Source of the DNA: a virus
Virus record (IMG/VR): IMGVR_UViG_3300009164_000235
Location: 1-30,322 of that record
Reading direction: 5' to 3' (one strand)
DNA: 30,322 bases
Shown: positions 1,458 through 30,322 of the stretch, in pieces
Position numbering within the stretch: position 1 is the first letter of the stretch
Layout: every line of letters begins with the position of its first letter
Notes under the pieces: model-generated
Told to the model about the DNA's origin: nothing
Databases searched by the model: none
The model's input: only the letters and a program-made list of their open reading frames with translations
Position numbers and translations under genes: made by a program

Positions 1458-1916
1458 TTACAAAAAATTATCATTAGTATTTTTCTTAACCAATAATTCC
1501 TTAATCCTTTCTTTCTTACGTTCAACTTGTTGTTCTTCAAATCCAAGGAATGTTGCAGTTGTATCTGTATCAATTTCAAGCATTTCATTATCAAACTTGC
1601 AATTCTCAAATACTATACCATCTTTTCCAATCCTTGATTTGGTAATAGCAACTGTGGCCAAATTCATCTCCTTTTGTTGAAGACTTTTTGCAATACTAAT
1701 GATAACATGACCTACTTGTGCTTTCTTTATTGAACCCCCCATCTGGTCATTTGTCACCACATTTGCAGATATAGATGAATTGTGTGTGTAAATATCATTG
1801 GCATAAAACATGTGAGTATCATCAACAGTAATGTCAATTGTATCCTCTTCACCTACCAATTCAATTGATTCAATTTCATCTAAAATAAAATCATTCTTGT
1901 TTAAAATTTGTTCCAT
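1458..1916 (-). CDS. 41: Split-intein C-half fused to C-terminal part of gp41-type replicative helicase
   Basis: This 152-residue protein is the downstream piece of a fractured DnaB/gp41-like helicase. Residues 1-46 are an intein C-terminal half. It ends in HMFYANDIYTHN followed by Ser47, which is the intein C-terminal block with the penultimate His45, terminal Asn46 and the +1 nucleophile Ser. Residues 47-152 are the C-terminal end of the RecA-like helicase core (SSISANVVTNDQMGG, then AITKSRIGKDG), matching the end of T4 gp41. The ATG lies inside the 3' end of the endonuclease gene (26-base overlap in another frame), so translation is probably coupled. Trans-splicing with the protein at 3181-4506 would give a helicase of about 457 residues, close to T4 gp41 (475). 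By itself this piece lacks Walker motifs and cannot be a helicase. Confidence 0.93.
   Translation of the reverse strand: MEQILNKNDFILDEIESIELVGEEDTIDITVDDTHMFYANDIYTHNSSISANVVTNDQMGGSIKKAQVGHVIISIAKSLQQKEMNLATVAITKSRIGKDGIVFENCKFDNEMLEIDTDTTATFLGFEEQQVERKKERIKELLVKKNTNDNFL
1779..1916 (-). other. Split intein, C-terminal half (46 residues)
   Basis: The half runs from the start Met to Asn46 and is followed by catalytic +1 Ser47. It is very acidic: 13 Asp/Glu against one Lys, a net charge near -12, opposite to the basic N-half. From memory it resembles the C-half of the metagenomic gp41-8 split intein (similar DEIxSIExVG and ETIDI-type segments). An alignment would be needed to give an identity value. 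Confidence 0.92.
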
Positions 1917-3123
1917 TTTTTAAAAAATTTAAGCAGTTATTTATTACAAAATCTTTATTACTCATATATTCGGATTCCTTGACCCTTTTAACAATATAAC
2001 CTTTTTTAACCAAAAAATCATCTCTATTGCTATCTATTTTTTTTTGTTCATCTTTTGAATGCCAGTAATCCCCATCAAATTCTATTATTTTATTACCTAA
2101 TTTAAAATCAACACTTATTATACTCATATTATTCTCCCAAACATAAAAAACATACTCATTATTTAGTTCATAAAAATAACAATTTAATCTATCATCATTT
2201 TCTAATTTAGAAAAAATACCCCAAAATAAATCTTGTGAAATTTTTGAGTATTTATCTTTGAATAGTGAGATTTTTGCTACCAAAAATTCTTTATACTTAA
2301 CATCCCCATCAAATTCCCCATATTTTTCAATAAAAAATTCTTTGCTTTGTGAAAATTTTATCCTGGATATAAAGTCATCATATCTAATGTTACCCTCAAT
2401 ATCACCATATCTATCTACAAATGAGTTTAAAGTTGTTTTAACCATACTAACACAATACTCATTCCAAAATTTTAACCCATCTACCTCCCCATATTTATCA
2501 ATATAATATGTCAAACTAAACCTATATGATTGCCTTTGATTCCTATCATACCATTTCTTATAACCTAATTCAATACCATATCTATTTTGATATTCAGGTA
2601 ATGTTCTCCCATTCCTATATGGCCTAATTTTTTTGTTTTTAGCCATAGTTGCAATTTTGGAATTTAATGTTTTTTCCCACCTTTTCCTACCCTCTTCTTC
2701 ACCATACCTCTCTATTGCCGGTTTTAACCCATATGAAACAGCTTTTTTATTTCTTTGTTCCCATTTTTTTGTGCCAAGATCAATTCCATATTTTTTTATA
2801 AAGTTATTTTTATCCATCTTAACTTTATCTTTAAACTCATCTTGTTTTATTTTCCAATTATCCCCATATCTTATTTTACAAGCATACTCACTAATGGCAT
2901 CATTTTTTAAATTTCTAACAATAACACCTAACCTACCTAACCATTTAGATTCAACATTGTTTAATATGAAATCAGTTATATTTAGTAATCTATTTTTTAT
3001 AGAATTAGTATCATAATATTCTATAATTTTATAAATTTCATAATATTGATTTTTAGTTATCAAATGTTTAACTTCTTTAATTTTCTTATAATTAAGAAAT
3101 TGTTCAATAGTAATTACCCCCAT
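1891..3123 (-). CDS. Free-standing homing endonuclease, Vsr-like (EDxHD-type) nuclease with six YG repeats
   Basis: The 410-residue protein lies between the two halves of the fractured helicase gene. Its C-terminal domain (about 335-395) has the Vsr/PD-(D/E)xK-like pattern: VDF, then IIEFDGDYWH (E348, D350, D352, H355), R367 and KKGYIVKRVKESEY, like the mismatch endonuclease Vsr. The middle (about 110-290) has six copies of a (K/R)YG-x3-G-x3-(W/Y) module starting at residues 111, 139, 181, 210, 238 and 267, mostly 28-29 residues apart, probably DNA-binding units. By analogy with the known fractured-gene split-intein loci, it likely cuts intein-less gp41 alleles to spread the whole cassette. 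Start is ATG at 3123, inside a hairpin. The 3' end overlaps the next gene by 26 bases. The target site cannot be read from the sequence. It has no LAGLIDADG, GIY-YIG or HNH motif. Confidence 0.88.
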   Translation of the reverse strand: MGVITIEQFLNYKKIKEVKHLITKNQYYEIYKIIEYYDTNSIKNRLLNITDFILNNVESKWLGRLGVIVRNLKNDAISEYACKIRYGDNWKIKQDEFKDKVKMDKNNFIKKYGIDLGTKKWEQRNKKAVSYGLKPAIERYGEEEGRKRWEKTLNSKIATMAKNKKIRPYRNGRTLPEYQNRYGIELGYKKWYDRNQRQSYRFSLTYYIDKYGEVDGLKFWNEYCVSMVKTTLNSFVDRYGDIEGNIRYDDFISRIKFSQSKEFFIEKYGEFDGDVKYKEFLVAKISLFKDKYSKISQDLFWGIFSKLENDDRLNCYFYELNNEYVFYVWENNMSIISVDFKLGNKIIEFDGDYWHSKDEQKKIDSNRDDFLVKKGYIVKRVKESEYMSNKDFVINNCLNFLKNGTNFKQE

Positions 3124-3175
3124 CTAATTTTATTTAAATATAAATATCACAAATGTTAAATAAGTTAGATGGGGG
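3117..3175 (-). promoter_or_regulatory. Long hairpin sequestering the homing endonuclease start codon
   Basis: On the minus strand the arms are 3175-3156 and 3137-3117: eleven perfect pairs (CCCCCATCTAA with TTAGATGGGGG), a small internal loop, then eight A/T pairs, closing an 18-base loop. The endonuclease ATG (3123-3121) lies in the 3' arm. No U-run follows, so it is unlikely to be a terminator. Read-through mRNA from the helicase gene should hide the start codon. The TATTTATA box (3139-3146) lies mostly in the loop, so a transcript begun there would lack the 5' arm and leave the start free. The structure is seen directly; the control role is inference. Confidence 0.7.
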
Positions 3176-3180
3176 CACAA

Positions 3181-4506
3181 TTATTTTTTAATAAAAAGTG
3201 CATCACCAACAGACAACCCACTATCAATGGATAATAAACCCCCACCTAATGTTGGAAATTTGTGTTTTGCTGACACTTTTATTTCCTTTCCACTTTTTGT
3301 CTTAATTCTATAAACAGGCTGTTTCTCAATAGGAAATACATAACTAATTGCTTTATATCCTTTATGTGTTAGAATATTATCCCCAACTATAACATCCTTT
3401 ATTTGAACCAATCCTTTATTCTCAATATCCACAATAGTATCTAAAGAAACACAGCGATTTCCTTGCGTACCAAGCCATCCAGCAATATTTAACTCATGGC
3501 ACATAGCCTCAAAATGACGTATAACAGATCCCTCGTTTTTCCAATCATCATTACCTTGTCTATCAGGCACAACACAATCAATATAATCCAATACAACCAA
3601 ATCAAGTTTAATGCCATCAGCAATAACCTTTCTTATTTGATTCTTTATTTGGTTCATTGTCAATGTGTCAGATGGTAATTTCTTTAATATTAGTTTATTT
3701 GTGTGGGTCTCTTTTATTTTATTAACCGTTTCAAATACTATTTCTTTATTGTTAGGTAATTCATCTGGGGCTATTTTTGTCCAAAGGGTAATATGCTTTC
3801 TCTGAATAATTTTTGGGTTATCTTCAAAAAAGATATGCAACACATTATAATTGTTATTGAACGCAGTATTTGCAACCAAGGTCAATAGGGTTGATTTGCC
3901 AATACCTGGGCCTGCAAATATAATACCAACCTCCCCCTTGGCTAAACCCCCCTTTAAGAGAACGTCTATACCCTTCACGCCCATTGGTATGGGGTGTCTA
4001 TAATCCTCATCTAATACACCAATCAAATCATTGAAAACTTCAAAACCATTTGTTTCTTTAACCCCAACTTGAAGGGCATATCTTAATAATTCTTCAAGTT
4101 GATCATAAGATTCAAAATCACCCTCATTGATAACTTTTTGTGCTTTTTCCAATACAATCTTAACCTCTTCTTGTTTGCAGAATTTAAGTGCCTTTTCTTG
4201 GACAAGTTCAACACCATCAAGTGGTGCTGAACTAATCTTACTTATAGTATCAATGACAATTTTTAAAGCCAATTCTTGTGTTATTTCAGACTTTGCAACA
4301 ACTTCCAATGTTTGAAAGTTGGGGGCAGCATCATATTTCTTATGATACTCCTTAATCATTTGAATGATTAATTTGAAATACTTATTCTCAAAATAAGATA
4401 TCTTAATAAAGTCCAATATTGCCCTAGCAAATTCCTTATCTAATATAATCTGATTGATTAATTGTAGTTGGAACGTCTGCCCCAAATAATCAAAATTCTT
4501 TGACAT
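3181..4506 (-). CDS. 41: gp41-type replicative helicase N-terminal part fused to split-intein N-half
   Basis: This 441-residue protein is the upstream piece of the phage replicative DnaB-family helicase, which unwinds DNA 5' to 3' at the fork and works with primase. Residues 1-351 hold the N-terminal helical domain and most of the RecA-like ATPase core: Walker A AGPGIGKST (198-206) and Walker B LDLVVLDYID (301-310). The helicase sequence stops at TQGNR (347-351) and continues directly into Cys352, the first residue of an intein N-half that ends at the stop codon. The missing C-terminal helicase segment is encoded 1.3 kb downstream after an endonuclease gene. Ligation of TQGNR to SSISA would restore the core. 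The ATG at 4506 lies 10 bases after the stop of the unknown gene upstream. Confidence 0.95.
   Translation of the reverse strand: MSKNFDYLGQTFQLQLINQIILDKEFARAILDFIKISYFENKYFKLIIQMIKEYHKKYDAAPNFQTLEVVAKSEITQELALKIVIDTISKISSAPLDGVELVQEKALKFCKQEEVKIVLEKAQKVINEGDFESYDQLEELLRYALQVGVKETNGFEVFNDLIGVLDEDYRHPIPMGVKGIDVLLKGGLAKGEVGIIFAGPGIGKSTLLTLVANTAFNNNYNVLHIFFEDNPKIIQRKHITLWTKIAPDELPNNKEIVFETVNKIKETHTNKLILKKLPSDTLTMNQIKNQIRKVIADGIKLDLVVLDYIDCVVPDRQGNDDWKNEGSVIRHFEAMCHELNIAGWLGTQGNRCVSLDTIVDIENKGLVQIKDVIVGDNILTHKGYKAISYVFPIEKQPVYRIKTKSGKEIKVSAKHKFPTLGGGLLSIDSGLSVGDALFIKK
3184..3453 (-). other. Split intein, N-terminal half (90 residues)
   Basis: It starts at Cys352 of the upstream gene (CVSLDTIV), the nucleophile for the first N-S acyl shift. 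The block B-type S-x-x-H (VSAKHKF, intein His64) and the GDNILTHKGY segment are present. It ends FIKK-stop with no endonuclease domain. It is basic overall (14 Lys/Arg against 9 Asp/Glu), complementing the acidic C-half. From memory it is closest to the metagenomic gp41-8 N-intein, with similar CLSLDT, KQPVF and VSANHKFPT stretches. Confidence 0.93.
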
Positions 4507-15758: not shown

Positions 15759-16071
15759 AATAAAAGAAATAATTTTCTGCTGCGTTTTTATAATCTAATA
15801 AAGAAGTTTCTAATGGAAATGGTATTTTCAACATTGCCCCATCATATATATTATTTTCAATACCACCGTGTTCTGGATTTGCAGCCAAAATAAGCCATCC
15901 AAAAAATGGACTCTGATAATATTGTTGAGAAATTTTATCTAATCTACTAACATTTTTTTTATAGAAAAATACATTATCCCCGCTCTTTGGGGGTAATTTC
16001 ACAAATGGCACAACTTTCTGTTCACCATTATTACTAAATAATGAATATCTATTATAATATTTTAAATTCAT
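15748..16071 (-). CDS. 53: Baseplate wedge protein, gp53/LysM-like
   Basis: This 107-residue protein resembles the LysM-like core of T4 gp53, a baseplate wedge component that helps lock wedges around the hub. The pattern is RLDKISQQYYQSPFFGWLIL, AANPEHGG, then YDGAMLKIPFP, matching the family scheme of a Y-G/Q stretch, W-x-x-I, N and G-x-x-L-x-I-P. It is shorter than T4 gp53 (196). It overlaps both neighbours (4 bases with the 1554-residue gene, 11 with the hub gene), so the three are translated together and probably assemble together. No signal peptide or membrane segment is present. Confidence 0.75.
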   Translation of the reverse strand: MNLKYYNRYSLFSNNGEQKVVPFVKLPPKSGDNVFFYKKNVSRLDKISQQYYQSPFFGWLILAANPEHGGIENNIYDGAMLKIPFPLETSLLDYKNAAENYFFYYGK

Positions 16072-19000
16072 CTCATTAATTTATTTTTAACCAAAATAAA
16101 ATTACTATCATTTTTACTCCAAGTATTTTTATTATTATCATAATTTTCATCGCCATTTAAATTTAATAATGCTTTTTTTGTTGCATTGTCTGGCGAACTT
16201 ATTTCATTATAATCAGTAATTAGATTTGCATTATTTATGGTAATACTTTTCAAAAATGTGGTAGCATCTTTAGTATAATTACCCAAAGCACTTAAAAATG
16301 TTGTTGTTTTATTGAAAATTATATTATACCCATTTAATTTTTTATCCCAATATTCCTTGAATACTTTTGATATTTTAATGTTAATATCATTTACTTTATT
16401 ATCTGGATTGACTGATTTAATAAGAATTTGTTTTTCAAAATTTTCAAAACCATTTTTATCTTTTAATGAACCATATAGCAATAAATAAAACAAACTATCT
16501 TGTTGACTCATTTTATATAAACTTTCTGGGTCATAATCAATCAATTTAAAATTAGGTAATATTTTATTTATATTTTCTCTAATACTAGATAAAATATCAT
16601 TAATTATTGTCATTCTATTCTTTAATTCATATACAAAGAATTGCCCACTTTTATCTACATAACCATCATAACCATCATAACCATCATGTGTTGACATAAC
16701 AAACAAAGCCTTACTCAATACTTTTTGAAATTTCTCTTGGGCTTCAATAATTTTTATAGCAAATGAATTAATAATATTGTTAACTTTTGACATTTCACTA
16801 TCAACATATAATTGATAGTTCTTTGAAACTTCAAACTTTGTATTCTTATCTGATGAAAATTCACTATTAATTTTATCAATAAATAAATCACTATTATTTT
16901 TAATATTATCTTTTATTTTTTTAGCATAATCGTCAATATCTTTTTGATAATTTGCTGGTATACCAAATAATTTTAAGTCACTATTGTTTATTGAGTTATA
17001 GACCCCCTCGGTATTATTTAATGTTTTTAATATAACAGAAATCAATTCAATATTGTATGATTTAGAATTTTCTTGGATAACTGAATTTATTGTATCAATA
17101 TATGTAATTGCTGAATTTTTTAAGTCATTAGCCAGATTTGAATATGTTAAAGTTTTATTAACAATATTTAATGTACCAATTGTGGTATACGAATTAACAA
17201 CTGGAATAACATCAAAATTTTCAGTTTTACCTTTCTCTTTCTCTTCAATAAAATCTTTAATCTTCTTGTCCATATCATCCAAACTATCATCTGTTTTTTC
17301 TGCTCTAGCATCATAAACTTCAGTATTAGCATAATAATTAAATGATAAAGCATTTTGCAATTTATCAACGGCTTTGCTTAATCCACTAGCACCAACAAAC
17401 TTAAATGATAAACTAACCTTTGCTATCATTGGTTGAAATCCTATTCCTTCTGGATTCATATCCCAAATTAACGGATCATAACTGATTGATAAATTTTCTG
17501 GTATAATTTTTGTATGATAAAAATCTCCAACCCTTAATATTAAAACAGGGGGAACACCAAAAGAAGTATTCTTTGCATCTCTAACTTCGCTTGTTCCATC
17601 TCCACGTATTGTTGGTATTGTTTCCCCAGGTCTAACGCATTGTTGCAAAAATGTTAATCTACCATTTAATCCTTCTGGCGTTGTTGAATGAAATGCTGGT
17701 GTGAAATATTTTATTTTTTCTTTTAAATTATTATATATAAATGGACTTGTTTCTTCAATTGTTTCAAAATAATCGCATTCCGTTAATAACTTTTGCAAAA
17801 CTTTTTTTGATACGCTTCCATATAATTTATCTTTAACTTTATTTGTTTCCTTTTCTTTTGCTTCAGTAATTACTTTAATTTGAGCCTCACTTGTTTCTTT
17901 TTTTGGTTCAATTTTTGGTGCAACACCTTTCTTTATTGCAGTAACGCCTCCTATAGCAACTCGCCTACAAGCCATAGCCTTTACACTATAAATTGCATTA
18001 TCTGTAAACGCACTACAATTTTCAACTCTAGTTGTTTGGTTAGTTGTTGACTTTGCTGTAACACCAGTGCCTTCACCAAGATTATTTGTTTTTATTGTAA
18101 AATTTGGTGATTTTATATTATTCTTTAAATATGTTATAACACTACTACTACGTCTTTCACTTAATTTTTTATTATAATCAATATCTGCTGGTCTTGATGC
18201 AGATGAATTAAGACTAACTTCAATAGTATTCCCATCGTTTTCTTTTAAGAAATTATTACATTCAGTTATGAATTTGTTTAGTTCTGTAAAATTATTTTTA
18301 ACATAATTATCCATAAAGGTTTTTACCTCCCCCTTACTATAACTTGTTGATGCAGTATACGTATTAAATAATCCAACATAATCAGCATCACTTGATTTGG
18401 GATTATCATTATCAAAATAAAAAGCAAAATCCCCATATTTGTCAAATGCTGTTACTTTTTCATCAGGAGGGGTAGTAACATCAAAAAGTGTAAAAGGGTC
18501 AACACCAGTTATTACTGTGCGTTTAATATATGATACTTCGTCTTTTGTAGATGGAGATTCTTTTACCATTTTTTGAATTTCTTCAAGTTCAGATAAAGTC
18601 ATCGTATTATATATTTTAGCCAAATCATATATATCATATTTTAGGCATCCAGCAAAAAAAGAAGTTAATATCCCATTTATTTGTTCAGAATTATTTTCTT
18701 TCTCTAAAACTCTATTTGCAATTAAATTAAGAATTGATGGATGGTCAACTATAATTTCAAAATCTAATGTACCATTTCTTGATGTATTTTTATAAGTATA
18801 AACTGGTTCAGGTCTACCCAAGAAATCATTTGCATTCCAATTTGCAGTAGAACTATCTGAAACTTTTAAATTATATGGAGGAAACCACATTATTCTACCA
18901 CCATTTGGTCCCTTCTCACATTCTGGCAAATCCAAAAACATATTTGTCGTTCTCCATGCCAAATTCTCAATAGATAACATATATTTTTTAGCATCATTCC

Positions 19001-20732
19001 CCTTCCTTGGGGCAATACTTAAATCAAAAGTTTTATTTATAACCGAACTCTTTAACCTCCTACCCTCAGTAGTTATACCGCTTGACTTCTGCAATCTATC
19101 ATAAGTCATATAAGGAGAATCTTTTGTAAATAATCTGCAATATTCTTGAAATGTACCCCCAACCAAAGTTTCTGGGTTTTGATACTTATATGTCCTAACT
19201 CTTGAACCTTTTGTTATTTCTTTATATCCATCATTAAATACCTTACTAACTTGATCCATTGCATTACCAACATGCTTCAATCTATTTGCCCCATTTGGTT
19301 GGGAATTAATAATTCTTTGAGTATCATCTAATATTGAACCTTTCTTTAATTCATAATTTGTTGATTCTGTTGTATCAAATGTTGTTCTCTTTGTACCATT
19401 GTCACCAAAAACCTCCCCACCTTTACCAACACCCTTACCACTATTTTCTTTATATTTAGGAGATACCCATGTAAACCCACCTTCAATACCCCCACCATCA
19501 ATATCAGATATACCATTCAATGCCATTTGGGGGTTAAAGTTTTCCCCTTCATATACTTTTGAAATCTCTGTTGGTCCATAGACACTTATCTTTATAGGTC
19601 TCCCAAATTGGTCTATTGGTAATTCACCTGCTGGAGATGCAATATCCCCAATATCCAAATTATCACTTCCAACATAATAAGTTTCTTTATTTTTTGTGAA
19701 TAAATCTAAAAAAGAACCTATAATACCACTTCTCTCATAATTTGGCTTATATAAATTTTTATTTATATTCTTATATAAAACTGACCTCTGACCAGCACCC
19801 ATATTATCATAGAATAATTGCGAACCAGTTTTCTTTTGTTGGAAAAGCCCCCCAAGAAATCCCTTATCACCCTTACCATTTAAACTAATTGTTTCATCAA
19901 AATAACTTCCAACAATACCAGGGAAAGGTAATTCACCACCAGCCAATTCTAATGACAATTGCGCAGCACCAACAAGTAAATTATTTGGTTTTGTTATACT
20001 CCAATTAGGTTGTAATATTGGATTTCTACCACTAATAAGATTATATACATCTAATGGGTCATTTAAACTATTAATCGTTTTTTCAAACTTTTTTATTATA
20101 TTAAATCTATCAGTTAATCTACCAACCCTTTCTACAAAATATTCATTTAAAACTTTCGCACCCAATCTTGTAATATACGAATCCGCAGCCAAATTGGATT
20201 TTGTTTCAGCATCATTTGTTAATATACCAAATGCCGTATATGTTGAGGCTTTAAAGTTAGTCACACCTTTATCCCAATAATATAAAATACCCTTCTTTGG
20301 TAAATTGGGATCAAACCAATAATCAAGTTTTTCTAAAAAAATACTTGAGTCAGTAGTATTATTAGCTGTTGTATAATAATTATTTGATAAATTATCTAAT
20401 AATATTTTATTATTAATCTTTAACGCATTGGCATTTTTTATACTATATTCACCAAAATTTGATTTTTTATTATTTAATACGCTAGGGTCAGTAACTTGTG
20501 TGTAACCACCAACAGCACCATATTGATTTAATGGATATAATTGTTTGGAATAAATTGGAGTGTCTATTAATTTATCATCACTATCAATTACTGAAAAAAC
20601 CCTTAATGGTGAGACCTCATAAAAAAATGGAGGATTTTTCCCATATGATGTTTTCTTATATGGGGGTAAATTTTTAGTTGTTAATAAATTCCTATAATTA
20701 AAACTATTTCCAAAATCTAAAGGACTTCTCAT
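16068..20732 (-). CDS. Large baseplate protein with OmpA-like segment
   Basis: The 1554-residue protein lies between the tape measure gene and the gp53-like gene, so it is probably a baseplate or hub-associated part. Residues about 600-665 carry GRIMWFPPYNLKV and a following FLGRPEPVYTYKNTSRNGTL stretch typical of phage tail proteins. Residues about 830-895 match the OmpA C-terminal peptidoglycan-binding pattern (EVSLNSSAS, then DYNKKLSERRSSSVITYLKN). Residues about 1055-1145 have PPVLILRVGDFY and NPEGIGFQPMIAKVSLSFKF, another recurrent baseplate element. The last 350 residues are Lys/Asn-rich, probably helical, and include a DGYDGYDGY repeat. It starts at ATG 20732 with a TATTTATA box 11 bases upstream. 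It has no signal peptide. The exact T4 counterpart is not clear. Confidence 0.85.
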   Translation of the reverse strand: MRSPLDFGNSFNYRNLLTTKNLPPYKKTSYGKNPPFFYEVSPLRVFSVIDSDDKLIDTPIYSKQLYPLNQYGAVGGYTQVTDPSVLNNKKSNFGEYSIKNANALKINNKILLDNLSNNYYTTANNTTDSSIFLEKLDYWFDPNLPKKGILYYWDKGVTNFKASTYTAFGILTNDAETKSNLAADSYITRLGAKVLNEYFVERVGRLTDRFNIIKKFEKTINSLNDPLDVYNLISGRNPILQPNWSITKPNNLLVGAAQLSLELAGGELPFPGIVGSYFDETISLNGKGDKGFLGGLFQQKKTGSQLFYDNMGAGQRSVLYKNINKNLYKPNYERSGIIGSFLDLFTKNKETYYVGSDNLDIGDIASPAGELPIDQFGRPIKISVYGPTEISKVYEGENFNPQMALNGISDIDGGGIEGGFTWVSPKYKENSGKGVGKGGEVFGDNGTKRTTFDTTESTNYELKKGSILDDTQRIINSQPNGANRLKHVGNAMDQVSKVFNDGYKEITKGSRVRTYKYQNPETLVGGTFQEYCRLFTKDSPYMTYDRLQKSSGITTEGRRLKSSVINKTFDLSIAPRKGNDAKKYMLSIENLAWRTTNMFLDLPECEKGPNGGRIMWFPPYNLKVSDSSTANWNANDFLGRPEPVYTYKNTSRNGTLDFEIIVDHPSILNLIANRVLEKENNSEQINGILTSFFAGCLKYDIYDLAKIYNTMTLSELEEIQKMVKESPSTKDEVSYIKRTVITGVDPFTLFDVTTPPDEKVTAFDKYGDFAFYFDNDNPKSSDADYVGLFNTYTASTSYSKGEVKTFMDNYVKNNFTELNKFITECNNFLKENDGNTIEVSLNSSASRPADIDYNKKLSERRSSSVITYLKNNIKSPNFTIKTNNLGEGTGVTAKSTTNQTTRVENCSAFTDNAIYSVKAMACRRVAIGGVTAIKKGVAPKIEPKKETSEAQIKVITEAKEKETNKVKDKLYGSVSKKVLQKLLTECDYFETIEETSPFIYNNLKEKIKYFTPAFHSTTPEGLNGRLTFLQQCVRPGETIPTIRGDGTSEVRDAKNTSFGVPPVLILRVGDFYHTKIIPENLSISYDPLIWDMNPEGIGFQPMIAKVSLSFKFVGASGLSKAVDKLQNALSFNYYANTEVYDARAEKTDDSLDDMDKKIKDFIEEKEKGKTENFDVIPVVNSYTTIGTLNIVNKTLTYSNLANDLKNSAITYIDTINSVIQENSKSYNIELISVILKTLNNTEGVYNSINNSDLKLFGIPANYQKDIDDYAKKIKDNIKNNSDLFIDKINSEFSSDKNTKFEVSKNYQLYVDSEMSKVNNIINSFAIKIIEAQEKFQKVLSKALFVMSTHDGYDGYDGYVDKSGQFFVYELKNRMTIINDILSSIRENINKILPNFKLIDYDPESLYKMSQQDSLFYLLLYGSLKDKNGFENFEKQILIKSVNPDNKVNDINIKISKVFKEYWDKKLNGYNIIFNKTTTFLSALGNYTKDATTFLKSITINNANLITDYNEISSPDNATKKALLNLNGDENYDNNKNTWSKNDSNFILVKNKLMR
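16659..16687 (-). repeat. Three tandem copies of a 9-base unit (ATAACCATC on + strand)
   Basis: It lies inside the 1554-residue gene and encodes HDGYDGYDGY. Slippage could change the copy number without breaking the reading frame. Confidence 0.9.
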
Positions 20733-23644: not shown

Positions 23645-24133
23645 TTAATATACTAATATACATCTATCAGGTTGCATAGTAATACTAATATCAGCCAATG
23701 AATCTGAATTATATGCTAAAGCACCAAAATCAGCATTTGTTATAATACAGCCAATTAATTGCCATTTTTCAATAACAACACCAGTTGGATCAAGTAGTTC
23801 TAACGTTAAATCTTGCTTATAACCAGAAGCGTAGCCCATTCTACCAGTAATTGATTCAGCATGTAACCTAACCCATTCCATTAATGCTTGAGCAGCAGAA
23901 GGTCCAATGGGGTCTCTAAATTTAACAGTAATTGGTTCCCATTTAAACCTACCAGAAACAAATGTTGATGTATTTAGAAATTCAATTTCTTTTGATGCTA
24001 TTGATATTTTAGGTCTTGATGCACTTTCAACAAACCATTCATTTATTCCCATAGCCGCAGGAAACCTTAATATGAACCTATTTTGTCTTTTTGGTTCATA
24101 TGGTAAAGGCATTTTCATAAGCAAATCCGCCAT
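23645..24133 (-). CDS. 19: Tail tube protein (gp19-like)
   Basis: The protein forms the inner tube of the contractile tail through which DNA passes. The 162-residue length equals T4 gp19 (163) almost exactly. Family features are PYEPKRQNRFILRFP near the N-terminus, the strand-loop segment IEFLNTSTFVSGRFKWEPIT, VKFRDPIGPSAAQALMEWVR, and the C-terminal TNADFGALAYNSDSLADISI, the usual gp19 ending. It is preceded by a 170-base A/T-rich gap (24134-24303) that contains a perfect 16-base palindrome TATATAATATTATATA (24275-24290) and an AATAAATA variant of the box (24177-24184, + strand), and is followed by a stem-loop. In most T4-like phages sheath and tube genes are adjacent; here two genes separate them. 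Confidence 0.95.
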   Translation of the reverse strand: MADLLMKMPLPYEPKRQNRFILRFPAAMGINEWFVESASRPKISIASKEIEFLNTSTFVSGRFKWEPITVKFRDPIGPSAAQALMEWVRLHAESITGRMGYASGYKQDLTLELLDPTGVVIEKWQLIGCIITNADFGALAYNSDSLADISITMQPDRCILVY

Positions 24134-26228: not shown

Positions 26229-29200
26229 TTATATATCTTCAAACGAAGCGCCAGTAGGTGTTATGACAAATTCCAAAGAGATAAATTCAAGACTTTTTGA
26301 TGGCTTGATGTAGATTTTTCCACTCATTGTATTTCTATCAATATCCTCTGGGTCATTTGAAACTGTAACACGGAAATCAGTTAAACCACGATCCCTTCTA
26401 ATACCATCTAAGATTGGATTTACCGTATCCAAAAACTGTTGGCGTACTATCTGGTCATTTTGTTCAAAAAGTAATCTCACAGCCACAGCAGAGATTAATT
26501 TACGCGCTTGCAATAACAACCTACGAACATTAAGTCTGTTTAATGCTGATTCTCTAACTTGCAAGGTTTTATTTCCCCAAATCACAGTATTCACATCAGA
26601 GAATGTTGCAATTGGATTTATTCTTCCTTGGTATAAAGTATCCCTATCATCTTGTGTTAACTTTAATCTTGCTTTAACTGAATTAACTAAACCCCTATTA
26701 TAACCTGCTGATGCAAACCAAGGGAATGCCACATTATCAGTTAATGCCAAATTCCTACAAACCTCTGCTGTTGGTGGGATATAAACTTGGGTATTATTAA
26801 CTTGGTCTCTAACCAAAATCCAAGGATAATATGTTGCTGTATAATTTGAATCAATGTTTGTTTCCTCCAATGATACAATGGATTCTTGGGGATAAATAAC
26901 ATTATTAACATCAGTTGTGAATAAATTAGCATCTGGCGTTGTAACAATATAAATTGAATCTGCTCTATCGCTTTCAACCATATCAATAGTACTTTCAACC
27001 AAATTACTATTATTAAGGTAGTCAATACCAGGTGTAACAAATACATTTATATTTGTTGATTCTGGGTTTTTAAACGTTAAGATACCTTTAAGATATGCAT
27101 AATAATCTGTTGTGGCAAAATCAATTGTATTATCACCTTCAATTATTTGTTTAAATGTACCTTGACCTGTTGCTCCAGCGTATTTACCTATAACAGATAA
27201 TGCACCCCTCATATAATCACTTCCACCAATTTGATAAGTATCACCATTGGTTCTCTTTTCAGAATAAACATCCCAACCATCAAAACCACCTTCAAATAAT
27301 AAAGTGAATTTCCTTGAATATAAATAATAGTAAGGATTTGTATTACCTTCTGGTTCAGATGTAAAATCACCCGCACCTACCTCAAAGGCTGTTTGACCAC
27401 TTGTTGTATAAAGATTAGCTATATTAACAACTGTTGCACCAGAATCCATATGGAATCCTTTTGTAACCACATTCCATTCATCACCATCTGATATTATATA
27501 ACTTGGATTTACCTTTCCTTTATAAGATAAGAATGAATTATCATAACCATAAGAAGTTGAGAATCCAAGATAAGTTCTTTTTAAATTATCAGCAGCCACT
27601 GCATTTGATGCAGCAAATGGTTCGTTATTAACAACCTCATTGTTATAGTTATATTTTGTTTTATATAATAAACTTGGCGTTAATTTTGTTCCATATTTTC
27701 TGTGGGGATATCCCATAAAACCAGAAGGTATAGCATCTGTTGGAAAATCATCTCCCATTTCAAGCATAATATATTTTGAAACTAAATTATATTCCCCATC
27801 ACTTGTACCTATTTTTTTACCAATAAAACTATTTTGTGTCTCATCCAAACTACAATTTGTATACTTCTCTAAAACAATAGGTGAACTATCTGAATCGTAG
27901 AAACTTCTAACCAATACATCAAATGTCCTATTCTTAAATGACATATTAATTATTGATACTTTTATTTCAGTATTGGCATTACTACCATCAGATATTGAAA
28001 TAAACTTAAATAAATTATAAACTTTATTACCCCTCAATTCCGAAACAACAAAAGGTGTTTTTGGTGATTGAAACTTTTCAAGATACCACCCAATTGAAGA
28101 AGCATTAAGGCTTCTTGCATTAGGTAAATAAGTTAAAACACTTCTTACCCCTCTAATATAACCAAGTTTATATGCTTGATTAAGTAAATTTGGATAATGC
28201 TCTTCAACAAATATTGGCACATCATTTCTATCCTTACCAAAATTATCAACACCTAATACATTTGTTATGTAATTTGAATTTGTATTCTTTAAAGAAACAT
28301 TAAATGTGAAATTATTATTTGATGTTGTTTTCCCACTTAATACAAAATTATTATATGGACTACTATCAATTTTACCACTATTAAGTGTATCAATATTTAA
28401 TGAATTACCTGTTAATGAATATATTTGACCATGATTAACAACAGAATAGTTTGTTATACCACGAGATCTGATAGTCGCAACAACCATATCATTGAATTGA
28501 TTGTATGGCGTTCCTGAAAATTTATACGTGTTACCAGATACTACTCCAGAAAAAGACCCACCAGTTTGACTCCAAGATGCAATATTGTAATAAAATGAAT
28601 AACCAACATATACGTTGGGGTCGATTGGGGTATCACCATCAACAGCCAATAAACTACCATTTATATCAATACCTGTTGCCAAATCAAATGTTGCATAATA
28701 CCAAAAATCATTTTCACTATCAGGTTTGTTATCACTACCCAAAGATACTGTTGTACCAAAATAATTATAACTAGTTAATCCAGATTTAGTTGACCCTGTT
28801 ATTGAGTTATATGCACTAACTGGAATTGAACCATAAGTTGTTGTCTGTCCAGTTAAGGTATTAGACAATGCAACACTATTAACAAATGATTTTAAATCGT
28901 CAAAAAAAGTTGTTGTAGTACCTACACTTGTTGTGTATGTATTTGACGAAAAAGAAGAAATGTTCATATTGTTTGGATATGTTCCAGATACATTAAAAGT
29001 TGCAGTTGAACCAGTTGTTCCAGTAAATGAAATATTAAATGAATTACCCGTAGTAGTGTAACCAATAGTTGAATGGTTAACGTTCGCAATTGTAGTTATA
29101 GACCAAGATGGACCAGCATCATAGCCAGATAAACCCAATACTCTTGTAACATACATTTGATTTGATTGCTGCAAATATGATTTGGCAATATATGCAGACT

Positions 29201-29423
29201 CATATTTTGGTATTTGTGTGTTTATATATTTTTCAGGTGATGTGCCACCAAAATACAATTGAAATTCATCATAACTAGTAATGAATATAGGCTCAAATGC
29301 GGGACCTTTAATTGTTTCACCAACCATACCTAGTGTTGTTACACCAATACTTTGAGAAACAAATGTTAAATCTGTTTCAGATGTATATACACCAGGCGAT
29401 ACGAATACTTTTTGATTTGCCAT
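26229..29423 (-). CDS. 18: Tail sheath protein (gp18-like), enlarged
   Basis: The protein forms the contractile sheath around the tail tube. The start VFVSPGVYTSETDLTF and the C-terminal third (about 785-1064) are typical: NVFVTPGIDY, YPWILVRD, NVAFPWFASAGYNRG, NRLNVRRLLLQARKLI and the end SLEFVITPTGASFEDI. With 1064 residues it is about 400 longer than T4 gp18 (659). The extra length is a Ser/Thr/Gly/Asn-rich region (about 115-400 and beyond) of strand-forming, low-complexity type, such as the run TGTTGSTATFNVSGTYPNN. In T4 gp18, insertion domains point outward from the sheath, so these are probably surface domains. The ATG at 29423 has an A/T leader and a TATTTATG box about 22 bases upstream. 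Two hairpins follow the stop. Confidence 0.95.
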   Translation of the reverse strand: MANQKVFVSPGVYTSETDLTFVSQSIGVTTLGMVGETIKGPAFEPIFITSYDEFQLYFGGTSPEKYINTQIPKYESAYIAKSYLQQSNQMYVTRVLGLSGYDAGPSWSITTIANVNHSTIGYTTTGNSFNISFTGTTGSTATFNVSGTYPNNMNISSFSSNTYTTSVGTTTTFFDDLKSFVNSVALSNTLTGQTTTYGSIPVSAYNSITGSTKSGLTSYNYFGTTVSLGSDNKPDSENDFWYYATFDLATGIDINGSLLAVDGDTPIDPNVYVGYSFYYNIASWSQTGGSFSGVVSGNTYKFSGTPYNQFNDMVVATIRSRGITNYSVVNHGQIYSLTGNSLNIDTLNSGKIDSSPYNNFVLSGKTTSNNNFTFNVSLKNTNSNYITNVLGVDNFGKDRNDVPIFVEEHYPNLLNQAYKLGYIRGVRSVLTYLPNARSLNASSIGWYLEKFQSPKTPFVVSELRGNKVYNLFKFISISDGSNANTEIKVSIINMSFKNRTFDVLVRSFYDSDSSPIVLEKYTNCSLDETQNSFIGKKIGTSDGEYNLVSKYIMLEMGDDFPTDAIPSGFMGYPHRKYGTKLTPSLLYKTKYNYNNEVVNNEPFAASNAVAADNLKRTYLGFSTSYGYDNSFLSYKGKVNPSYIISDGDEWNVVTKGFHMDSGATVVNIANLYTTSGQTAFEVGAGDFTSEPEGNTNPYYYLYSRKFTLLFEGGFDGWDVYSEKRTNGDTYQIGGSDYMRGALSVIGKYAGATGQGTFKQIIEGDNTIDFATTDYYAYLKGILTFKNPESTNINVFVTPGIDYLNNSNLVESTIDMVESDRADSIYIVTTPDANLFTTDVNNVIYPQESIVSLEETNIDSNYTATYYPWILVRDQVNNTQVYIPPTAEVCRNLALTDNVAFPWFASAGYNRGLVNSVKARLKLTQDDRDTLYQGRINPIATFSDVNTVIWGNKTLQVRESALNRLNVRRLLLQARKLISAVAVRLLFEQNDQIVRQQFLDTVNPILDGIRRDRGLTDFRVTVSNDPEDIDRNTMSGKIYIKPSKSLEFISLEFVITPTGASFEDI

Positions 29424-29526: not shown

Positions 29527-30322
29527 TTAAGAGCCTCCTCCAACAGAACAAAATTGCCCAGTATTTGTTACATCTATTTCTGGGTCACTTGGTGCTGGTG
29601 GGAAAGCAGTAGCAGCTACGCATATAGATGCATTTTCACCAACCTCTAAAAACCATTGTGAACCACCTCCATCACATCCAGTATATACAACAGACCCAGG
29701 ATAAGGTGATAAATTTGTTATAGAATAAATTGTACAACACTGACAGAATGTGCTATTAGATTCTACAAGGCTACCTTGTCTTGTTGTGTTATATCCATCA
29801 GCACATGGATTGTTTTGTACTTCAACATTATACTTGTTACATGTTCCATAACAATTAAATGAACCACTATTTACCCAATTTTGTGCTGTTGATTGACCAC
29901 AACATCCTCCACAGAATGTGGAATTTGTTGCCACAAGGCTACCTTGTCTTGTTGTGTTATATCCAGATGCGCATATGTTGTTTTGGATTTCAACATTGTA
30001 TTTGTCACATGTTCCATAACAATCAAATGAACCAGTATTTACCCAATTTTCGGTTGCATTACAAGGTGTTCCAGTATTAATTATTCGTGTTTGATTATAT
30101 GTTGGACTACATAGATTATCGTCTCTTTGTGGTTGTCTAAGAGTACAACCCACACAAGTTGGTGAACCATTAGTAACCCAATTTTGTGCTGTTGATTGAC
30201 CACAACATCCTCCACAGAATGTGGAATTTGTTGCCACAAGGCTACCTTGTCTTGTTGTGTTATATCCAGCAGCACATGAATTGTTTTGTACTTCAACATT
30301 ATACTTGCTACATGTTCCATAA
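29527..30322 (-). CDS. Cys-rich repeat protein, C-terminal part (runs off window; likely virion adhesin)
   Basis: The frame is open to the window edge, so the true start is outside; a GTG at 30237 is not the start because the repeat continues upstream of it. About 264 residues are visible. They consist of tandem units of about 56 residues beginning YGTC(S/D/N)KYNVE, continuing CA-x-GYNTTRQGSLV and NSTFCGGCCGQSTAQNWV, ended by a non-repeat C-terminal cap (from about CTIYSITNLSP onward). One unit is replaced by a related half-unit containing DDNLCSPTYNQTR. Similar Cys-rich, SPTYNQTR-type repeats occur in proteins of Bacteroidota and their phages, as I recall. Position before the tail sheath suggests a tail fibre or surface adhesin. 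The fold is unknown and disulfides or metal binding are both possible. Confidence 0.85.
   Translation of the reverse strand, partial: YGTCSKYNVEVQNNSCAAGYNTTRQGSLVATNSTFCGGCCGQSTAQNWVTNGSPTCVGCTLRQPQRDDNLCSPTYNQTRIINTGTPCNATENWVNTGSFDCYGTCDKYNVEIQNNICASGYNTTRQGSLVATNSTFCGGCCGQSTAQNWVNSGSFNCYGTCNKYNVEVQNNPCADGYNTTRQGSLVESNSTFCQCCTIYSITNLSPYPGSVVYTGCDGGGSQWFLEVGENASICVAATAFPPAPSDPEIDVTNTGQFCSVGGGS
29873..29966 (-). repeat. 94-base perfect direct repeat, copy 1
   Basis: It is identical to 30176-30269, 303 bases away, inside the Cys-rich gene. It encodes the QSTAQNWV and NTTRQGSLV part of the repeat unit. A third, partial copy of the ACAAGGCTACCTTGT stretch is at about 29765. Confidence 0.95.
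30176..30269 (-). repeat. 94-base perfect direct repeat, copy 2
   Basis: It is the exact second copy of 29873-29966. Base identity rather than only protein similarity points to recent duplication or gene conversion. Confidence 0.95.

What the first reader, a model, noticed from the sequence alone, without database searches (positions are those of the whole stretch)
29527..30322. Cys-rich tandem repeats with a 94-base perfect duplication
Base-level identity between 29873-29966 and 30176-30269 in a gene likely to encode an adhesin suggests recent copying or gene conversion, a way to vary length and specificity. The Cys pattern is unusual for a protein assembled in the cytoplasm.
Basis: partly seen in the sequence, partly recalled or inferred. 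Interest (0 to 1): 0.5.

Follow-up and report, generated by a model that had tools for sequence, protein, structure and literature searches.

The report
Swappable cysteine-repeat phage adhesin end
The end of this viral contig encodes the tail end of a probable cell-binding protein of a bacterial virus, built from copied cysteine-rich modules that sit at a genome position where close relatives carry quite different binding proteins; this suggests the virus changes its grip on bacteria by copying and swapping modules, but it rests on one unfinished contig.

Summary
The 94-base perfect direct repeat is real in the contig (29873-29966 = 30176-30269, maximal). The gene is on the minus strand, ends at 29527 and runs off the contig; 264 residues are visible: four Cys units (B and D shorter) and a 69-residue C-terminal cap. 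The upstream unit is a mosaic of two others, switching at the edge of a 33-nt block common to all three, which points to intragenic recombination (misassembly is not excluded: the contig stops 53 nt beyond the repeat). The unit matches no Pfam, NCBIfam or PHROGs family at a meaningful score. It recurs in 30 other IMG/VR contigs, with differing copy number. AlphaFold2 predicts three strands per unit. The gene lies next to the tail sheath. A relative with 99% identical sheath protein keeps the cap but has Thr/Pro-rich linkers and other small modules in place of the array; identity breaks at the cap's first Cys codon. In other relatives this site is empty, or holds Fib_succ_major proteins, in three loci with a diversity-generating retroelement. 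Best reading: a modular adhesin at a swappable site. Receptor binding is inferred, not shown. Phage adhesin shuffling is a known kind; the Cys-module family appears undescribed.

The parts
29527..30322 (-). 3' part of a probable adhesin gene (264 codons visible, runs off the contig)
   Evidence: open frame to stop at 29527
30154..30321 (-). Cys unit A (residues 1-56); first part like unit D, then 94 nt identical to unit C
30019..30153 (-). Cys unit B (residues 57-101), shorter type without the GGCCGQ segment
29851..30018 (-). Cys unit C (residues 102-157)
29743..29850 (-). Cys unit D (residues 158-193), last unit before the cap
29873..29966 (.). 94-nt perfect repeat, copy in unit C
30176..30269 (.). 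94-nt perfect repeat, copy in unit A
30236..30268 (.). 33-nt block identical in units A, C and D; unit A is C-like up to its edge and D-like beyond
29530..29736 (-). C-terminal cap domain (residues 196-264); shared with L003, where the rest of the gene differs
26229..29423 (-). tail sheath gene next to the adhesin gene
   Evidence: phrog_23 E 5.9e-59
23645..24133 (-). tail tube gene
   Evidence: phrog_4542 E 9e-29

Best explanation
This is the distal part of a modular virion adhesin of a contractile-tailed phage, probably of Bacteroidota. Small three-stranded Cys modules are strung into a rod and end in a conserved Cys cap. By analogy with the nearest relative, the gene probably begins with a conserved structural domain (by synteny perhaps a neck or tail-terminator protein) that holds the rod on the particle. 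Specificity changes in two ways: the stretch between anchor and cap is exchanged as a block (shown by comparison with one relative), and units inside the array are copied onto one another by homologous recombination (shown as a mosaic in this contig). Inferred, not shown: attachment to the particle, receptor binding, and disulfide formation after release from the reducing cytoplasm.
For: Perfect 94-nt block, a clean run that 0 of 200,000 shuffles reached; beyond it unit A differs from D at 2 of 53 sites and from C at 12 of 53; 7 C-like informative sites are followed by 10 D-like (two-run order about 1e-4). Protein constraint alone does not explain it: in the best 31-codon stretch the window pair A/C shares 31 of 31 residues with 30 of 31 codons identical, whereas the best pairs in other arrays share 29 of 31 residues with 23 of 29 or 19 of 29 codons identical (only pairs with at least 20 of 31 residues kept). 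L003: 97% DNA identity through sheath and cap, broken at the cap's first Cys codon. Variable site: of 72 sheath loci examined, 38 are of the window's clade and 25 of these show the conserved upstream gene; 5 of 25 have only 63-70 nt between it and the sheath, 20 of 25 have 1.0-5.3 kb. RT matches in 4 of 72; TR/VR pairs in L008, L020 and L026 with 10 of 10, 7 of 7 and 8 of 9 mismatches at template A. Fib_succ_major-type matches in 21 of the 38 (family named). Arrays of 2-10 units in 30 other IMG/VR contigs; two-unit model pLDDT 93.5.
Against: No array was found in any of the 80 sheath-linked loci (many of them end before the site), so its presence at this site rests on one contig that ends inside the array. 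No binding function is known for the unit or the cap; no confident fold match. The upstream conserved protein matched no named family, so 'neck' is synteny only. The longest exact repeats in arrays of other phages are 38 nt, and in most none reach 21 nt, so recent copying is not a general habit of these arrays.
Confidence: 0.6

Rival explanations
1. Assembly artefact: the true array has other units, and the assembler joined unit C's 94-nt block to a D-like flank, making a false mosaic unit A at the contig end.
For: The contig ends 53 nt beyond the repeat, inside the array; the switch lies at a block shared by three units, where graph assemblers go wrong; no independent contig carries the repeat.
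Against: In the last 53 bases unit A has two private bases (30279 and 30308) that match neither C nor D, and on the other side of the block it differs from C at 7 of 22 sites, so it is not a plain splice of the two; exact repeats up to 38 nt also occur in other arrays.
Confidence: 0.25
2. Structural rather than receptor-binding: the Cys array is a decoration or stabilising rod of the virion and does not set host range.
For: Similar arrays end very different long proteins without adhesin annotation; no known carbohydrate-binding family matches P0001.
Against: Exchange with other modules at the site, and DGR-type diversification of proteins at the same site in relatives, are typical of binding proteins (PMC8143477 passages).
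Confidence: 0.25
3. No recent copying: strong purifying selection on protein or RNA keeps the 94 nt identical.
For: The segment encodes the most conserved part of the unit.
Against: Codons of identical residues differ in every other listed pair, and the flanks of the same two units differ at all codon positions.
Confidence: 0.05

Closest known systems
Adhesin module exchange in T-even phage distal tail fibres (recalled literature, not read here)
   Same: block exchange of distal adhesin modules between conserved flanks, driven by recombination at shared motifs
   Different: here the modules are Cys units with a conserved C-terminal cap, the gene lies next to the sheath, and the relative's gene is fused to a conserved upstream protein
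DGR-diversified Fib_succ_major / C-type lectin proteins of Bacteroides phages (PMC8143477, passages read)
   Same: the same site in the window's relatives carries Fib_succ_major proteins, in three loci with TR, VR and RT
   Different: the window gene shows no such domain; its variation is block exchange and unit copying, not adenine mutagenesis
BACON / DUF5977 protein of epsilon crAss-like phage csAssE-Sib (OR575929, WOZ57277.1)
   Same: contains three units detected by the Cys-unit profile
   Different: the units there stand among 12 DUF5977 and 3 BACON stretches, in a phage of another kind
Tentaclins (PMC10743442, passages read)
   Same: string of small beta domains with a conserved C-terminal domain in phage binding proteins
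   Different: Ig-like domains with an N-terminal hypermutated C-lec domain; none of these was detected in the visible part
Thrombospondin type 1 repeats (properdin)
   Same: small three-stranded Cys/Trp unit; properdin chains appear among weak structural rows (Z 2.1-2.8)
   Different: tied with unrelated rows; no TSP_1 match in Pfam at E up to 1

Membership tests
Contractile-tailed T4-like phage | tail sheath and tail tube genes near each other | tested here: met
   phrog_23 sheath E 5.9e-59 and phrog_4542 tube E 9e-29; sheath related to Flavobacterium phage immuto and T4-like phages
DUF5977 (PF19404) | Pfam profile match | tested here: not met
   no match of P0001 at E up to 1; the same library finds 12 stretches in the csAssE-Sib protein
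BACON domain | Pfam profile match | tested here: not met
   no match of P0001 at E up to 1; 3 stretches in the csAssE-Sib protein
Thrombospondin type 1 repeat | three-stranded fold with stacked Trp/Arg and three disulfides (definition recalled) | tested here: inconclusive
   three strands per unit predicted; properdin rows weak, tied with unrelated folds; disulfides not tested
Diversity-generating retroelement target | variable repeat with adenine-directed differences from a template repeat, plus RT | not testable with these tools
   the window gene and its upstream region are cut off; the feature was seen in L008, L020, L026 only
Modular phage receptor-binding protein | exchange of modules between close relatives with conserved flanks | tested here: met
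   window versus L003
Modular phage receptor-binding protein | binds a host receptor and is present on the virion | not testable with these tools
   no experiment

The most novel reading that the evidence does not exclude
A previously undescribed family of Cys modules forms an extensible binding rod in Bacteroidota phages. In one phage lineage a single genomic socket beside the sheath gene accepts interchangeable recognition cassettes, some diversified by a retroelement and some by recombination among repeats, so that the diversification engine itself is swapped between relatives.
Probability: 0.3. Interest if true: 0.65.

Novelty: new variant of a known kind. Interest (0 to 1): 0.45.

Why it matters
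If true, one site in closely related phages offers a natural comparison of empty site, retroelement-diversified lectin-type protein and recombining Cys-repeat adhesin, all beside the same sheath gene. It would also put a widely distributed, unnamed phage repeat family on the map, and raise a testable question of how Cys-rich virion proteins mature when they are made in a reducing cytoplasm.

Tried and rejected
Single-protein searches: P0001 gave no relative in IMG/VR and one weak phage hit; the repeat alignment was needed. Profile matches of P0001 in Pfam, PHROGs and NCBIfam were all weak, and below the curated cut-offs where these are given. Solved-structure sequence searches gave nothing meaningful. 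Foldseek found no match at E 0.001 in the PDB or BFVD. VIA-align gave best Z 3.3 (cap, complement C4b2) and 2.7 (two-unit model, monellin); the thrombospondin idea came from properdin rows and a similar recalled Cys spacing and is kept only as a lead. The upstream conserved protein (A7, 13 rows) matched nothing in the PDB set, no PHROG at a useful score (9 of 13 members hit phrog_4841, best E 0.039, unnamed) and no phage record. Cellular homes: the strict profile found none in genome contigs, the looser one 1 Chitinophagaceae MAG contig with one unit. Literature: no paper held all terms for Cys-rich tandem repeats in Bacteroidetes phage tail fibres, Flavobacterium phage Cys-rich repeats, or DUF5977 with phage; a search for intragenic repeats and recombination in tail fibres found none. 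These searches cover open-licence PMC only. No Rfam match in the window.

In the informative-site count I set aside sites left of position 30214, because there unit D is replaced by the cap and is not homologous, and one site (30279) that fits neither unit. From, 72 of 80 sheath loci entered the site analysis; 8 (L031, L041, L048, L063, L067, L069, L073, L075), most of them with the sheath start or its upstream region cut off, were left out. Many loci are near copies of one another (L011-L017 and L027, for example), so the counts are of loci, not independent events.

Full report
Observation. They lie in a minus-strand frame that is open from the contig end to a stop at 29527. The contig is a 30,322-base virus record with nothing else held for it. 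The visible 264 residues comprise Cys units A, B, C, D and a cap. In an alignment of 14 units from the window and relatives, C1, C17, Y21, N22, R25 and C37 are invariant.

The repeat is a mosaic. Unit A matches unit C over 94 of 94 bases and then, over the last 53 bases of the contig, resembles unit D (2 differences) rather than C (12 differences). Ordered along the homologous part, 7 informative sites are C-like and the next 10 are D-like, with one site fitting neither; a two-run order has a chance of about 1e-4. The change falls at the edge of a 33-base block that all three units share. As a control, unit pairs of other arrays with nearly the same protein conservation keep fewer identical codons. 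This supports recent copying or conversion between units. It does not exclude misassembly, because the contig ends 53 bases beyond.

Surroundings. The neighbouring gene is a tail sheath, followed by an endolysin-like gene and a tail tube gene. L003, with 99% sheath identity, has the cap at the C-terminus of a 1141-residue protein. Its N-terminal 250 residues are a conserved domain that stands alone in other loci; after that come Thr/Pro-rich linkers and a few small Cys modules unlike the window's. The DNA identity of 97% runs through the sheath and the cap and stops at the first Cys codon of the cap. L003 and the window therefore differ by exchange of everything upstream of the cap that can be seen.

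The site is a socket for different genes. Of 72 sheath loci examined, 34 belong to a more distant clade (59-62% sheath identity); 33 of these show the conserved upstream gene, with its own short extension and no other cargo in most. Of the 38 in the window's clade, 25 show the upstream gene: 5 have 63-70 nt between it and the sheath, 20 have 1.0-5.3 kb of cargo. The other 13 do not show it, in part because the contig ends. Cargo includes Fib_succ_major-type proteins (21 of 38 loci by tblastn; family named by Pfam for L006 and L018), and a reverse transcriptase (4 of 72 loci by tblastn, one of them partial; L008 identified as phage RT by PHROGs and RVT_1 by Pfam). In L008, L020 and L026 I found template/variable repeat pairs: 10 of 10, 7 of 7 and 8 of 9 mismatches in the best 80-base stretch of each pair are at template adenines; a second stretch of L008 (5336 against 6018) was less clean, 9 of 14. 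Adenine-directed difference beside an RT is the hallmark of a diversity-generating retroelement. Similar targets are reported in Bacteroides uniformis phages whose tropism is thought to depend on them (PMC8143477, passages read).

The Cys unit elsewhere. Three scans of IMG/VR and an iterated profile on all held loci (210 domains in 45 frames of 127 sequences, with contigs fetched more than once and the window twice) show it in 30 other IMG/VR contigs, in phage csAssE-Sib, and, as one weak unit, in a Chitinophagaceae MAG. None of the 80 sheath-linked loci carries it. It usually stands towards the C-terminus of long, otherwise different proteins, often behind Thr/Pro-rich linkers, and many of these end in a relative of the window's cap (25 frames have caps, duplicates included; L003, L094, L095 and L038 have the cap without the array, L003 and L094 being the same contig). 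Copy number differs between related proteins: 10 units in L110 and L111 (identical DNA over the 9 kb compared), 7 in L112, at 69-74% protein identity. L110, L111, L112 and L102 also contain exact repeats of 24-38 nt; the other arrays have none of 21 nt or more.

Structure. AlphaFold2 with a 9-row alignment gave mean pLDDT 80.6 and pTM 0.36 for the 264 residues. A two-unit model (residues 90-195, 25 rows) gave pLDDT 93.5 and pTM 0.62, with three strands per unit. Foldseek and VIA-align gave no confident match. A likeness to thrombospondin type 1 repeats is a lead only.

Mechanism. Shown: the repeat, the mosaic in the contig, the exchange with L003 at the cap boundary, the variable site, and retroelements at that site in relatives. 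Inferred: that the protein is on the virion, that it binds the host, that the array is a rod, and that disulfides form after lysis. The host is probably a member of Bacteroidota, judged from relatives (Flavobacterium phage immuto sheath, 34.7% identity; csAssE-Sib from human gut; Fib_succ_major), which is indirect; the best-covered sheath match among named phages is from a Microcystis phage (29.8%).

Novelty. Shuffling and repeat-driven recombination of phage adhesins are known kinds (recalled). The Cys-unit family has no entry that P0001 or its relatives match in the libraries searched, and my paper searches found no description. I rate it a new variant of a known kind.

Noticed in passing
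window 1458-4506 (minus strand): A DnaB-like helicase gene appears fractured: its upstream part ends in an intein N-terminal segment (3181-4506), its downstream part starts with an intein C-terminal segment (1458-1916), and a separate ORF with a weak MTES_1575/DUF559 nuclease match lies between. This looks like a split-intein fractured gene of the kind described in the literature (recalled).
   Followed up: partly
L008 5431 and 6110, L020 48 and 729, L026 5428 and 6111: Template/variable repeat pairs with adenine-directed differences beside a reverse transcriptase, in the gap upstream of the sheath gene.
   Followed up: partly
window 16658-16687: A short 9-base tandem repeat (3.3 copies) inside the 1554-residue ORF, giving a YDG repeat.
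   Followed up: no
L010, L021, L022, L028, L029 upstream of the sheath: Apparent empty sites: only 63-70 nt separate the conserved upstream gene from the sheath gene.
   Followed up: partly
window 16068-20732: A 1554-residue ORF has a weak OmpA-like stretch (Pfam E 0.0026, below cut-off, residues 825-900).
   Followed up: no
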